From Calditrichales bacterium (GTDB lineage Bacteria; Calditrichota; Calditrichia; Calditrichales; J004), in contig WGCN01000069.1 of assembly GCA_015493745.1 (NCBI GenBank), positions 1 to 63,354 of the forward strand: 63,354 nucleotides of DNA. The letters are read 5' to 3'. Shown here in pieces: positions 1 to 4,595 of this stretch (its first letter is position 1; every line of letters begins with the position of its first letter). The notes under the pieces are model-generated. The model made no database searches. It had not been told where the DNA came from and saw only the letters and a program-made list of their open reading frames with translations. The position numbers and the translations under genes were made by a program.

Positions 1-230
1 CCGTCCTGGGTAACCCTTATGTTACCCAGATGGTCTTTCAGGTAATAGGCTTCATTGATCTGGGTATAGGTGACGGTCAGCTTGGGCCAGCGGTTAGCAT
101 CGCTGTGCTGGGTGCTGGCGTAACGCACGCTGTGGTACTTCTGCTCCGTTTGCAGGCGCATCTCAAAGCCGTTGTTGCCCTCTTCGCTATTGAGTATATC
201 CTTTACCAGGCCGGTCACATCGGCGGACAT
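1..230 (-). pseudogene. RHS/DNRLRE protein fragment, runs off left edge
   Basis: The minus strand reads a DNRLRE-type module end (DVTGLVKDILNSEEGNNGF, then EMRLQTEQKYHSVRYAS) directly followed by the RHS core signature YYLKDHLGNIRVT at the window edge. This is the usual order in large FCB-group surface proteins, where a DNRLRE domain precedes RHS repeats. The frame closes upstream at a TAA only eight codons before the first ATG (228-230), so the long N-terminal part expected of such a protein is missing here. The C-terminal part lies outside the window. I read it as the remnant of a once larger RHS gene, although expression from the internal ATG is not excluded. Confidence 0.6.
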
Positions 231-253: not shown

Positions 254-307
254 GGTCTTTCAATGAACAATAATCACAAACTATATAAAAGAGGCATATT
301 ATTCAAC
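254..307. repeat. 54-bp direct repeat, copy 1
   Basis: This 54-bp stretch recurs at 2157-2210 in the same orientation with one mismatch (A at 269 versus T at 2172). The two copies bracket the interval holding the DNRLRE fragment, the toxin-like RHS tip and the putative immunity gene. They could be recombination scars or duplicated junctions from insertion of the cassette. No integrase or transposase is visible between them. Confidence 0.85.
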
Positions 308-499: not shown

Positions 500-736
500 T
501 TACACAAAAAAGCTTATACTACCGGTACTGGTGTAACGCATGCTTCGGTATTTTTGCTCGTTTTGCAGGATCAGCTCAAAACCATGGTTGCCTTCGTCGC
601 TGTTTAAAATATCCTTGACCAGGGGCAGCACGTCCTGCACCAGGGAATCCGTTCCGTTGGACGGCGCGGGCACGGCAATTTGGTGTTCCGTGGTGGCGCC
701 GGGCTGTGTGTTCCAGGTAACGCTGTATTCGTTCAA
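500..736 (-). pseudogene. DNRLRE-module fragment (78 aa)
   Basis: The 78-residue frame contains the end of a DNRLRE module: WNTQPGATTEHQ, then DVLPLVKDILNSDEGNHGF, then NEQKYRSMRY. It matches the module at 1-230 (NGFEMRLQTEQKYHSVRY) closely enough to suggest duplication. It then stops after a short unrelated tail (SISFFV), with no RHS region following. I infer a decayed partial copy of a larger surface protein gene. It lies downstream of the putative immunity gene, as expected in an RHS locus that has recombined repeatedly. Confidence 0.55.
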
Positions 737-788: not shown

Positions 789-1205
789 CTAATCTTTCTT
801 AATTGAGCTTTCTGCTAAATTATTATGCCATTTTTTAAAAACAAAAAACAAGTATGTAGGTAATCCTAAAAATAATATTAGAAAGAAAAAATCTGACACA
901 TAATATTTTTCTTTAACTGGAGAGAATAGGGAAAAAAACAGAATATATAAAATGGCAAGACATGCAATATATGCTCTAAAAAACCACAACCTACTCTTAT
1001 AAAGCCCCCAGGATAATAGAAAGAATAAAATACTGATTACAAAACTTCCGATGCCAAATATAACTGATGATTCAAATTCAACTGAAATTTTAGATACCTC
1101 GTATTGAAAGTAATGATTGAGAACAACCATTATTGAAGAACCAAGAAAAACAACTCCTAATATTATAAACATACTCAACAATGTATATTTCAAAGATTTA
1201 TTCAT
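789..1205 (-). CDS. Putative membrane immunity protein for the RHS-Tlde1 toxin
   Basis: The protein has 138 residues from the ATG at 1205; an upstream in-frame start at 1247 would overlap the toxin gene. It shows four hydrophobic segments (about residues 7-28, 45-65, 72-92 and 104-124) with Lys/Arg-rich loops and a charged C-terminal tail. I recognise no family. The case for immunity is positional: it begins 29 bp after the stop of an RHS tip with a periplasm-acting toxin-like domain, on the same strand, and its base composition is markedly AT-rich like the toxin's 3' half. A membrane protein suits protection against an enzyme acting on peptidoglycan outside the cytoplasm. It could instead be an unrelated small membrane protein. 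Confidence 0.5.
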   Translation of the reverse strand: MNKSLKYTLLSMFIILGVVFLGSSIMVVLNHYFQYEVSKISVEFESSVIFGIGSFVISILFFLLSWGLYKSRLWFFRAYIACLAILYILFFSLFSPVKEKYYVSDFFFLILFLGLPTYLFFVFKKWHNNLAESSIKKD

Positions 1206-1233
1206 GTTATTAGCCTCAAAACTGACGGTAATA

Positions 1234-2088
1234 TTAGTAACCCACACTCAGTTTAATTTTACCAGTTTGTTTATTAAGTGTATGGAAAAAAGATGCGTTA
1301 TTTCCAGCTAGATCGATACAACCAATAGAACCTGGGACAAGCCCCCCATGTATAAAAAACTTTCCTCTACCACCAGGCACTGAAAATAACGGAACTAAAG
1401 GTAATCTTTGTTCTCCCCATGCAACTGTACCACCGGGCCATGCACCATGTTTCCCAAAAACTCCTACTCCACCAATCCAAGACGCTAGTTTATTAACAAA
1501 TGAAAGATCGCACCATCTTTGTATATTTCCGGGGTTAACAGAATACATACCTTCTGGAATCGGGCCAGCATTGGGAACAAATTGTAGACCTGGTTGGGTA
1601 TTACCAAATTCATCAAGTATTCCTGATACAGCACTCCAGCTTGTAATCCCACCGTCTTCCATTAAGAAAGATAATTTACTTCCGTCAAAGGTGAACAACA
1701 TGTCCAAACCCTTAACAGTATTCATTACTTTATTGCCACTATCATCATATTCACCATTCCAAATACTCTTTTCTTTTGTATCAGCATAATACTTCCACTT
1801 TTTTCTCGTTTTAGTAACTTTATTGCCGTCCTCATCTTCCTCTTCATATTCTTCCGTAACTTCATACCACTCCATACCGTTTGGATCAATATATCGAATA
1901 GGGTTGTTGTTCATGACAACATACGGGCTTGAAAATGGAAACTTGTGCGCCATTGGGTCCACACTCCCCCAGCGCCCAATCGCCGGGTCATCCCGAGTGG
2001 TCGGGATTTCCGCTTGCCTGCCTTTGGCAAGGCTGCGCTCCAATAGTACCTGGCCCCAAAGTAGTATCCCGGATTCCCGGGATTTCAT
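1234..2088 (-). CDS. Orphan RHS tip with Tlde1-like L,D-transpeptidase toxin domain
   Basis: The 284-aa frame begins within the RHS core end. Residues 34-71 carry DPAIGRWGSVDPMAHKF and NNPIRYIDPNG, the junction where RHS/YD proteins switch from core to variable toxin. Residues about 72-115 are an acidic/basic linker. Residues about 130-284 contain GPIPEGMYSV and FFIHGGLVPGSIGCIDL, with His247, Ser254 and Cys257 in the H-x6-S-x-G-C pattern of Tlde1/YkuD-type L,D-transpeptidase-like toxins, which act on peptidoglycan. Upstream of residue 33 the frame is shifted by a 53-bp palindromic insert (1990-2042): another frame reads GYYFGARYY just before it. The product is therefore an N-terminally truncated cassette, either silent until recombined onto a full RHS gene or decayed. 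The toxin domain itself looks intact. The start at 2088 is uncertain and has no convincing ribosome site. Confidence 0.65.
   Translation of the reverse strand: MKSRESGILLWGQVLLERSLAKGRQAEIPTTRDDPAIGRWGSVDPMAHKFPFSSPYVVMNNNPIRYIDPNGMEWYEVTEEYEEEDEDGNKVTKTRKKWKYYADTKEKSIWNGEYDDSGNKVMNTVKGLDMLFTFDGSKLSFLMEDGGITSWSAVSGILDEFGNTQPGLQFVPNAGPIPEGMYSVNPGNIQRWCDLSFVNKLASWIGGVGVFGKHGAWPGGTVAWGEQRLPLVPLFSVPGGRGKFFIHGGLVPGSIGCIDLAGNNASFFHTLNKQTGKIKLSVGY
1990..2042. repeat. 53-bp double-hairpin insert in RHS core
   Basis: It lies between the codons for GYYFGARYY and DPAIGRW, which are normally contiguous in RHS proteins. It holds two perfect hairpins: ATCCCGA/TCGGGAT (1990-1996 and 2001-2007) and CTTGCC/GGCAAG (2013-2018 and 2026-2031). 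Because 53 is not divisible by three, it shifts the frame. A related palindrome, ATCCCGG/CCGGGAT, lies nearby at 2066-2083. It looks like a small non-autonomous palindromic element. Confidence 0.6.
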
Positions 2089-2629
2089 CCCGATGTGCGA
2101 GCCCGGAAGCGAGTGTATTATCGGGGTTTAGGTAAATTTTATGGGTTACCGTCCCGGGTCTTTCAATGAACTATAATCACAAACTATATAAAAGAGGCAT
2201 ATTATTCAACCGCCGGGATAACGGCTTTTCCTGCAAGGCTCTGCCAAAACAATGATTCTTCTTCGTTCTTTTGTTTCGCCAAAAGAACCAAAAGCATCAG
2301 CGGAATTTTATCTCATTACCATGACGTCATTTACTGCTACCCGGTCACCCGAAAATTCCGCCTTTTTTTCCCGTGGGCGTGTTTGTGGGGTTATACAATA
2401 GTGTCCTGGCATGGCTCCAGGGAACTCACGCCAAAGGCTCACCAACCGGCCGGCTCATCCATCTTTTTGTATTTTTTATTTTTTATTTTATATTCCCTTC
2501 ATTTGTCATTTGCCTGCCCGGCTCCGTCGGGTCATTTGTCATTTGTCATATTTTCGCCAATGGCTCACCAAACGACTACCTCTGCCACCATTTTTATTTT
2601 GTATTTTGTATTTTGTATTCTTACCCCAA
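2089..2629. other. Non-coding, repeat-rich interval
   Basis: No convincing gene is present. From 2089 to 2156 it holds decayed RHS-like sequence. From 2157 to 2210 it holds the second copy of the 54-bp repeat. From about 2450 to 2635 it is low-complexity T-rich sequence with iterated TTTTGTATTTTG and CATTTGTCATTTG words, and two near-copies of CGCCAAAGGCTCACCAA (2429 and 2554 regions). This marks the edge of the accessory island. Confidence 0.5.
2157..2210. repeat. 54-bp direct repeat, copy 2
   Basis: Same orientation as the copy at 254-307, 53 of 54 bases identical, offset 1,903 bp. See that entry for interpretation. Confidence 0.85.
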
Positions 2630-3277
2630 CTAACCGCCTAAAGGGCGGCCGGCGTCGAAAACGATATTGAGGAAGGCGCTAAGCAAAAAACCGGTAACGC
2701 CCCAGATCAGATCATCCCCATAACGATAGTAGTGCACCTGCCATTCATAACCCCGGTGGCGGCGCTGTTCGGTATAAAATACAGCGTCATCCAAAAAATG
2801 ACACAGGGGGGCCTCTATCAACCGGTCGATCTCTCCCTCGCTGATGCGGTAGCGTTCCGGCGGACTAAACAGCCCCACATAGGGCGTCACCAGATAGTGG
2901 GTGTTGGTCAGCATGCCGTCGCTTTGCCCCAGTACTTCAATGCCGGAACGCGCAATGCCGACCTCCTCTTCCGTTTCGCGCAGGGCGGCATCCAGCCGGT
3001 TTTTGTCCCCGGCATCCTGGCGACCGCCGGGGAAGGAAATCTGTCCCTTGTGTTGCACCAGATTTTCACTACGCTTGGTAAAGAGAATATGGGCCTGCCC
3101 ATCCTTAAAAAAGAGGGGGATAAGAACCGAAGCCGGAATGGCGCGGATATCTTTATCAAAAATAAAATTTTGGGGAACATGGGCGTTCAGGCGGGCGCGG
3201 ATATGGGAGCTCCAGCGGCCGGATTGCCGGCAAAGCTCCGCGGCAGGGTCAGCTAAACTCTTCATCGCGGATATCAT
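2630..3277 (-). CDS. Nudix hydrolase, coenzyme A pyrophosphatase type
   Basis: A cytoplasmic protein of 215 aa. The Nudix box is complete (GGRQDAGDKNRLDAALRET followed by EEEVGI, about residues 88-112). Just before it lies the LFTKRSENLVQHKGQISFPG stretch, the signature that separates CoA pyrophosphatases (NudL/UPF0035 group) from other Nudix enzymes. By family it would cleave CoA or its derivatives to 4'-phosphopantetheine and 3',5'-ADP using Mg2+. The start overlaps the stop of the sigma-54 regulator (3249) by 29 bp; a second ATG at 3265 would shorten the overlap. The overlap suggests translational coupling. Confidence 0.85.
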   Translation of the reverse strand: MISAMKSLADPAAELCRQSGRWSSHIRARLNAHVPQNFIFDKDIRAIPASVLIPLFFKDGQAHILFTKRSENLVQHKGQISFPGGRQDAGDKNRLDAALRETEEEVGIARSGIEVLGQSDGMLTNTHYLVTPYVGLFSPPERYRISEGEIDRLIEAPLCHFLDDAVFYTEQRRHRGYEWQVHYYRYGDDLIWGVTGFLLSAFLNIVFDAGRPLGG

Positions 3278-4595
3278 ACTCTTCCAGTTTGTTATAAAGC
3301 GAGCGCCGGGAAATGGCCAGCATTTCCGCCGCCTTCAGTTTATTGCCGCGGGCCATTTTCAGGGTTTTTATGATCGACTCGCGCTCGATTTCCGGCAGGG
3401 GCGTGCCGGCGGGGAAACGGATTTCATGGCCGGCGCTGGTGCGTTTACGGATCACCTCCGGCAGATCTTTTTTGGTGATGCGGTTTTTAGCGGAAATCAT
3501 GGTGCGCAGCACAATGTTGCGCAATTCCCGGATATTGCCCGGCCAGCCATAGGCTTTCAGAATATTCAAAGCCTCGTCATCTATACCGCTGATATTACGC
3601 TTATACTGTTCGTTAAAACGATCGATAAAGTAATCCACCAACAGGGGGATATCATCCACCCGTTCGTTAAGCCGTGGCAGATCGATGGAGTAGACATTCA
3701 GCCGGTAATAGAGATCGTCGCGAAAGCGGCCCCTGCCGATCAGCTCTTCCATATTTTCATTGGTGGCCGCCACGATGCGCACATCCACCTTAATTTCCTG
3801 GCCGCTGCCCACCCGTTGCACCATTTGCGTTTCCAAAACGCGCAGCAGGGCAATTTGCACCTCTTCGCTCATGGAGCTGATCTCATCGAGAAACAGCGTG
3901 CCCCCGTCGGCCTCTTCAAAGCGGCCCTTTTTACGGTCGATGGCTCCGGTGAAGGCCCCTTTTTCATGACCGAACAGTTCGCTGGCGATCAGCTCCCGGG
4001 GGATGGCTCCGGTATTGACGGCCACAAAGGGTTTATCGCGCCGTGACGAGGCCTTGTGGATGGCCTGGGCCACCAGTTCCTTGCCCGTGCCGCTGGCCCC
4101 GAAAATCAGAACCGGCACGTCAATATCGGACACGTCGTTAATCTTTTTCACCAATTGACGGATGGGCCGGGAATTGCCGATTATCTGATCAAAATGCAGA
4201 TGATGTCTGTCGGCCGCTCTTTTCACCCCGGCGTTTTTTGCCAGCAGGCGGGCGATGATCTCTTTCAGCTTTACCGGGTCCACCGGCTTGGGAATATAGT
4301 CCGCCGCGCCCAGATGCACCGCCTCCACGGCGTGTTCAATGGAGCTGAAACCGGTCACCATGATCACCTTGAGCAGGGGATCATAATCGTTGATCATTTT
4401 CAGCAGCTCCATGCCGTCGATGTCCTGCATCTTATAGTCGGTTATGACCAGATCATAATGACGGCGCTGAATAAGACGCATGGCCGATTCGGCGCCGTCG
4501 GCCTCATCCACACTGTATTTTTGCGCCTGCAAAAGCAGAACCAGGCCCTCACGGTGATTTTTATCGTCGTCAATAACAAGAATATGTTCGTTCAT
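3249..4595 (-). CDS. NtrC-family sigma-54 response regulator
   Basis: The 448-aa protein has three domains: a receiver (residues 1-120, acidic pocket D10/D11, phospho-acceptor D53 in VITDYKMQ), an AAA+ sigma-54 interaction domain (about 140-370, Walker A GASGTGKE, GAFTGA loop, Walker B GGTLFLDE) and a Fis-type HTH (about 405-445, KAAEMLAISRRSLYNKL). It should activate sigma-54 promoters when phosphorylated. The only classical sensor kinase in the window is at 8511-9833 on the same strand, about 4 kb away. It is a reasonable partner, but nothing in the sequence proves it. The Nudix gene overlaps its 3' end. Confidence 0.92.
   Translation of the reverse strand: MNEHILVIDDDKNHREGLVLLLQAQKYSVDEADGAESAMRLIQRRHYDLVITDYKMQDIDGMELLKMINDYDPLLKVIMVTGFSSIEHAVEAVHLGAADYIPKPVDPVKLKEIIARLLAKNAGVKRAADRHHLHFDQIIGNSRPIRQLVKKINDVSDIDVPVLIFGASGTGKELVAQAIHKASSRRDKPFVAVNTGAIPRELIASELFGHEKGAFTGAIDRKKGRFEEADGGTLFLDEISSMSEEVQIALLRVLETQMVQRVGSGQEIKVDVRIVAATNENMEELIGRGRFRDDLYYRLNVYSIDLPRLNERVDDIPLLVDYFIDRFNEQYKRNISGIDDEALNILKAYGWPGNIRELRNIVLRTMISAKNRITKKDLPEVIRKRTSAGHEIRFPAGTPLPEIERESIIKTLKMARGNKLKAAEMLAISRRSLYNKLEEYDIRDEEFS

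What the first reader, a model, noticed from the sequence alone, without database searches (positions are those of the whole stretch)
789..2088. Candidate RHS-linked Tlde1-type toxin and membrane immunity pair
The RHS tip ends in a domain with GPIPEGMY and HGGLVPGSIGC, the His...Ser-x-Gly-Cys pattern of L,D-transpeptidase-like Tlde1 toxins that attack peptidoglycan. A four-helix membrane protein starts 29 bp after it, the usual place for an immunity gene. Immunity by an inner-membrane protein fits a periplasmic target. The pairing of this toxin fold with this immunity type in an FCB-lineage RHS locus is, as far as I know, not described.
Basis: partly seen in the sequence, partly recalled or inferred. 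Interest (0 to 1): 0.75.

Follow-up and report, generated by a model that had tools for sequence, protein, structure and literature searches.

The report
Orphan RHS peptidoglycan-toxin tip with membrane immunity
A displaced, low-GC cassette carries the tip of a bacterial weapon protein (an enzyme fold that trims cell-wall peptides) and, right behind it, a small membrane protein that probably protects its owner; this is a new member of a kind of toxin-immunity pair outlined in 2012, and this copy is not attached to a delivery gene.

Summary
On the minus strand, ORF 2088-1234 is an RHS-core remnant (residues 34-72) followed by a Tlde1/L,D-transpeptidase-like domain (about residues 130-284) with H247, S254, G256 and C257 in register. 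ORF 1205-789 is a 138-aa protein with four hydrophobic segments, starting 29 bp after the toxin stop. Pfam alone is weak (E 0.004-0.03), but a family profile finds the Tlde1a crystal structure (E 4e-13), and the AlphaFold model's best PDB match is Tlde1a (E 2e-7). In 28 of 32 dereplicated genomic homologues a small protein with at least two TM segments directly follows the toxin, against 3 of 243 control genes. Six other homologues are also RHS tips with a 3-5-TM protein behind; the nearest are Ignavibacteria tips. The toxin/membrane-immunity reading is well supported by homology but untested. Corrections: (1) it is an orphan tip with a frame-shifted RHS remnant, no attached RHS gene, and no T6SS sheath gene found in the assembly; (2) the pairing is not new: Zhang et al. 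2012 list RHS-linked Tox-LD-peptidases and say some of their immunity proteins are secreted or TM; (3) H129 of Tlde1a is Ile here, and non-His in every relative collected. Solid but ordinary.

The parts
1234..2088 (-). Orphan RHS tip ORF, 284 aa (broken RHS-core remnant plus C-terminal toxin domain)
1873..1989 (-). RHS-associated core remnant (DPAIGRWGSVDPM...YIDPNGM), residues 34-72
   Evidence: TIGR03696: E 1.6e-6
1237..1701 (-). Tlde1/L,D-transpeptidase-like toxin domain, about residues 130-284; H247, S254, I255, G256, C257
   Evidence: Pfam PF10908 E 0.0036; profile to Tlde1a 7uma E 3.9e-13; AlphaFold pLDDT 87.9, Foldseek 7uo3 E 1.6e-7
789..1205 (-). Candidate immunity protein, 138 aa, four hydrophobic segments, 26.6% G+C
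   Evidence: positional association in relatives
1206..1233 (-). Short intergenic gap with a GAGG before the immunity ATG
2157..2210 (-). 54-bp repeat upstream of the tip (7 matches in the assembly, one partial; also upstream of the orphan tip on C175)
254..307 (-). Second copy of the 54-bp repeat, just before the next RHS fragment
500..736 (-). Truncated fragment of the CBM96-like region that precedes RHS cores in this genome
   Evidence: Pfam CBM96 E 0.0041, below cut-off
3..230 (-). Next RHS fragment (CBM96-like end plus YYLKDHLGNIRVT core start), runs off the contig end

Best explanation
The locus is a displaced ('orphan') polymorphic-toxin cassette in a Gram-negative bacterium, probably Calditrichota. 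The tip encodes a Tlde1-like L,D-carboxypeptidase/transpeptidase domain that, when carried on a full-length RHS protein and delivered to the periplasm of a neighbour, would attack the tetrapeptide stems of peptidoglycan through C257 assisted by H247. The 138-aa four-helix protein would sit in the producer's inner membrane and neutralise the toxin in the periplasm. As it stands the tip has a broken RHS remnant and no attached delivery gene, so it is most likely a silent spare that could be brought onto a main RHS gene by homologous recombination, while the immunity gene may be expressed by itself. Shown: the fold family, the catalytic residues in register, the gene order, the association of such toxins with small TM proteins, the orphan state. 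Inferred: enzyme activity, periplasmic target, membrane topology, neutralisation, recombination.
For: A profile of the family (including this domain) finds Tlde1a 7uma at E 3.9e-13, and at 3.4e-9 from a larger alignment. The AlphaFold model (pLDDT 87.9, pTM 0.84) has Tlde1a as its best PDB match (E 1.6e-7, TM about 0.6), then YkuD and other L,D-transpeptidases. H, S, G and C are invariant among 25 aligned relatives. A small protein with at least two TM segments follows directly in 28 of 32 dereplicated genomic homologues against 3 of 243 control ORFs in the same loci (Fisher p about 1e-30), but in only 1 of 8 viral-contig homologues. RHS core is confirmed in L035, L040, L054, L076, L081 and L104, all followed by a 3-5-TM protein. 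The window tip groups with the Ignavibacteria RHS tips (98/92). In Nostoc a LysM domain lies between RHS and toxin. G+C falls from 55% (RHS remnant) to 39% (toxin) and 27% (immunity), as expected of an imported module. Orphan state; a second orphan with another tip behind a leader about 80% identical. Precedent for orphan activation: PMC3967940.
Against: The Pfam score is below the curated cut-off (15-18 against 30 bits). I255 replaces H129 and P230 replaces R99 of Tlde1a, two residues of its catalytic pocket. The 138-aa protein has no convincing relative, so its role rests on position and analogy. No complete RHS gene was found, only fragments and contig ends. No T6SS sheath protein was found, so the delivery route is unknown.
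Confidence: 0.8

Rival explanations
1. Decayed debris: the tip and its neighbour are remnants of an RHS gene, no longer expressed and no longer under selection.
For: Frame-shifting insertion in the RHS motif, stops upstream, truncated fragments beside it, many repeats; no clear ribosome-binding site before ATG 2088.
Against: Toxin and immunity frames are fully open with all catalytic residues kept; the insertion is shared with a second orphan whose tip and following gene are also open, which suggests re-use of the same leader with different tips.
Confidence: 0.3
2. The domain is a housekeeping or phage-type cell-wall enzyme and the 138-aa gene is an unrelated neighbour.
For: The fold occurs in phage endolysin and tail-lysozyme proteins, and 7 of 8 viral-contig homologues have no TM neighbour.
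Against: It lies behind an RHS remnant; its nearest relatives are RHS tips with multi-TM neighbours; there is no signal peptide or wall-binding domain here.
Confidence: 0.05
3. The 138-aa protein is not an immunity protein but a helper, such as a holin-like or export protein.
For: It has no relatives, and topology alone cannot tell.
Against: Small TM proteins, mostly without detectable similarity to each other, occupy this place across the family: the pattern of fast-changing immunity genes, not of a conserved helper.
Confidence: 0.1

Closest known systems
Tlde1a (Salmonella Typhimurium T6SS effector, PDB 7uma/7uo3)
   Same: Fold and catalytic H/S/G/C in the same spacing; W93 and R115 equivalents kept (W224, R241); matched by profile and by structure.
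   Different: RHS tip, not a T6SS-cluster effector; I255 instead of H129, P230 instead of R99; immunity candidate downstream and multi-TM, whereas Tldi1a has a sec signal (PMC9638812) and its gene lies upstream (PMC10434147).
Tox-LD-peptidase of polymorphic toxin systems (Zhang et al. 2012, PMC3482391)
   Same: L,D-peptidase (H, S, C) as toxin of RHS proteins, also in Bacteroidetes; [quoted passage not shown]
   Different: The immunity families named there (Imm16, Imm57) do not match the 138-aa protein; this phylum is not listed.
Ignavibacteria RHS tips L035 and L040
   Same: RHS core, same toxin subfamily (98/92 support), multi-TM gene 8-10 bp downstream.
   Different: Carried on long RHS ORFs (1812 and 520 aa); immunity candidates have five TM segments and no detectable similarity to the 138-aa protein.
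Orphan rhs-CT/rhsI modules (Salmonella LT2, PMC3967940)
   Same: Displaced tip plus immunity gene, partial RHS sequence, apparently lacking expression and export signals.
   Different: Different toxin; the long stretch shared here is with another orphan, and recombination with a main gene was not observed.

Membership tests
Tlde1 / PF10908 domain | Pfam gathering score (30.1 bits) | tested here: not met
   15.4-18.2 bits, E 0.004-0.03; several relatives do pass, e.g. L054 with 39.4 bits
Tlde1 / PF10908 domain | Sequence-profile and structural match to Tlde1a | tested here: met
   E 3.9e-13; Foldseek E 1.6e-7
Tlde1 / PF10908 domain | Catalytic H121, S128, G130, C131 in register | tested here: met
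   H247, S254, G256, C257
Tlde1 / PF10908 domain | Full L,D-transpeptidase motif (S/T)HGC with H129 | tested here: not met
   SIGC here; A, I, R, N or G in 61 homologues, never His (the search pattern itself favoured A or I)
Tlde1 / PF10908 domain | L,D-carboxypeptidase/transpeptidase activity | not testable with these tools
   needs a muropeptide assay
RHS polymorphic toxin | RHS-associated core ending in the junction before a variable tip | tested here: inconclusive
   TIGR03696 E 1.6e-6, but only the C-terminal half of the model and 28.5 bits against a cut-off of 32.5
RHS polymorphic toxin | Complete delivery protein | tested here: not met
   orphan tip; only fragments in the assembly
Orphan rhs-CT/immunity module | Displaced tip plus immunity gene with partial RHS sequence and no intact carrier | tested here: met
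   lack of expression not tested
Membrane immunity protein | Small multi-TM protein directly downstream of the toxin | tested here: met
   29 bp, four hydrophobic segments; pattern in 28 of 32 relatives
Membrane immunity protein | Specific protection against the cognate toxin | not testable with these tools
   needs a toxicity assay
Type VI secretion effector | T6SS present in the genome | tested here: not met
   No VipB/TssC match; assembly 94% complete

The most novel reading that the evidence does not exclude
A coherent subfamily of Tlde1-like toxins with S-(A/I)-G-C in place of S-H-G-C, coupled almost always to fast-diverging 2-5-TM immunity proteins, is shared across at least six phyla and several carriers (RHS, DUF4280, MuF-like phage head proteins, and others), and the loss of the second His together with membrane immunity marks a distinct specificity or a membrane-proximal substrate.
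Probability: 0.25. Interest if true: 0.5.

Novelty: new member of a known kind. Interest (0 to 1): 0.3.

Why it matters
It adds this little-known lineage (probably Calditrichota) to the hosts of RHS-linked peptidoglycan toxins and gives a count (28 of 32 against 3 of 243) showing that this toxin subfamily comes with small membrane proteins. Membrane immunity against periplasmic L,D-peptidases was proposed in 2012 and becomes directly testable with many ready pairs.

Tried and rejected
Single-protein scans of genome contigs and viral contigs found nothing; an alignment query was needed. Relatives of the 138-aa protein: none in plasmids, viral contigs or 60 relatives (one hit at E 0.005); in 385 relatives only weak hits (E 1e-4 to 1e-3) in hydrophobic stretches, two of three with stop codons, judged chance. 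Among the immunity candidates blastp gave no hit for the window protein. Pfam hits to Deltameth_res and Tetraspanin (E 0.2-0.6) rejected as composition. PHROGs and PADLOC gave nothing for either protein. T6SS delivery rejected for lack of a sheath gene. The 54-bp repeat as a recombination site of the cassette was considered; copies sit near RHS fragments and contig ends, but nothing shows the mechanism. Promoter and terminator scans were uninformative for promoters.

Full report
What is there. The window is contig C69 of a 3.7-Mb, 94%-complete assembly, and its first base is a contig end. The host phylum is held with only 40 genomes; a single-contig 5.0-Mb genome in the same order and the sparse phylum suggest Calditrichota, which is my inference. 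On the minus strand lie ORF 2088-1234 (284 aa) and ORF 1205-789 (138 aa), 29 bp apart, the latter preceded by a GAGG. Residues 34-72 of the first match the C-terminal half of the RHS-associated core.

Toxin domain. Pfam gives Tlde1_dom only weakly (E 0.026 for the whole ORF, 0.0036 for the domain). tblastn found relatives in Cupriavidus, Eleftheria (annotated as Tlde1 domain-containing), Ensifer and faecal contigs. A profile of eight sequences including this one finds the Tlde1a crystal structure at E 3.9e-13; a profile of 25 gives 3.4e-9. The AlphaFold model (pLDDT 87.9) has Tlde1a as best PDB match (E 1.6e-7), followed by YkuD and other L,D-transpeptidases. H121, S128, G130 and C131 of Tlde1a correspond to H247, S254, G256 and C257; W93 and R115 to W224 and R241. 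H129 is replaced by I255 and R99 by P230. In Tlde1a the substitutions tested other than D40A abolished toxicity, with S128A and R99A explained by misfolding (PMC9638812). In the collected homologues the H129 position is A, I, R, N or G, never His, but the search pattern itself asked in part for A or I.

Immunity candidate. The 138-aa protein has four hydrophobic segments, no family and no convincing relative. The case for immunity is positional. An alignment-based scan gave 53 genome loci and 18 viral loci. After dereplication at 75% identity, 28 of 32 genomic homologues have a 70-200-aa protein with at least two hydrophobic segments starting within -60 to +110 bp of the toxin stop; of 243 other ORFs of at least 150 aa in the same loci, 3 do (Fisher p about 1e-30). 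Of 8 viral-contig homologues only 1 does. The TM count is a simple hydropathy rule and the ORFs are mechanical, so the numbers are approximate. Most of these small proteins are not detectably related to each other, as expected of immunity genes.

RHS-linked relatives. RHS core is confirmed in L035 and L040 (Ignavibacteria), L054 (Nostoc, with a LysM domain between RHS and toxin), L076, L081 and L104, and each is followed by a 3-5-TM protein. The window tip groups with L035 and L040 (98/92). A more distant RHS-Tlde1 tip in the same phylum (L007) is followed at once by a 363-aa protein with a signal-peptide-like N-terminus, so both secreted and TM types occur. Other carriers in the family are DUF4280 (L046) and MuF-like proteins (L041, L047, L052), and large proteins in Ensifer and Ciceribacter that look like contractile-injection cargo by eye.

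Orphan state. Stops lie just upstream of the tip ORF. The motif YYFGARYY-DPAIGRW, intact on contig C168, is split here by a 52-nt insertion that shifts the frame, so the first 30 or so residues of the 284-aa ORF are not RHS sequence. Contig C175 has a second orphan tip, with a different tip and following gene, behind a leader about 80% identical over 493 bp that has the same insertion. Downstream of the pair lie two more truncated RHS-region fragments, the last running off the contig. The closest described case is the Salmonella orphan rhs toxin, silent until fused to the main rhs gene by recombination (PMC3967940). No full RHS gene and no T6SS sheath gene was found in the assembly, so delivery here is unknown. 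G+C drops from 55% to 39% to 27% across remnant, toxin and immunity gene.

How it probably works, and what is known. On a complete RHS carrier the domain would reach a neighbour's periplasm and trim or exchange the fourth residue of the peptide stems, as Tlde1a does (PMC9638812); the four-helix protein would shield the producer from the membrane. Activity and protection are inferred. This is not a new pairing in kind: Zhang et al. 2012 list Tox-LD-peptidase (H, S, C) with RHS repeats, including in Bacteroidetes, and state that a subset of its immunity proteins are secreted or TM (PMC3482391). I therefore file it as a new member of a known kind, with low to moderate interest.

Noticed in passing
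window 254-307 and 2157-2210; C175:591-650 and 1945-1998; C86:113-169; C15:62331-62384; C185:1075-1106 (partial): 54-bp repeat family in this genome, several copies next to RHS fragments or at contig ends; possibly part of a mobile or recombining element.
   Followed up: partly
L027 (C175) 1919-3334: Second orphan RHS tip (322-aa ORF, no Pfam match for its tip) followed by a 144-aa protein with a signal-like N-terminus, behind the same leader as the window tip.
   Followed up: partly
L028 (C168) 79-1908: RHS core with a 378-aa ORF and unidentified tip, followed by a 228-aa protein with a signal-like N-terminus: a third tip/immunity candidate pair in this genome.
   Followed up: no
L007 1396-2298 and 301-1392: Another RHS-linked Tlde1-like tip in the same phylum (HPGNSNYATGC) with a putatively secreted 363-aa partner.
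   Followed up: partly
L014, L016: Tlde1-like domain inside large proteins next to an ATPase-like gene in Ensifer and Ciceribacter, resembling contractile-injection cargo by eye; followed by a further large gene, not by a small TM gene.
   Followed up: no
L013 5629-6372: Homologue with an N-terminal membrane region and the catalytic Cys lost (HGGTKNSSPWGID): possible inactive relative.
   Followed up: no
L088, L089, L091, L093, L099: Tlde1-like proteins in large phage contigs without TM neighbours; viral structure matches include endolysin and tail-lysozyme proteins, so the fold also seems used as a phage wall enzyme.
   Followed up: partly
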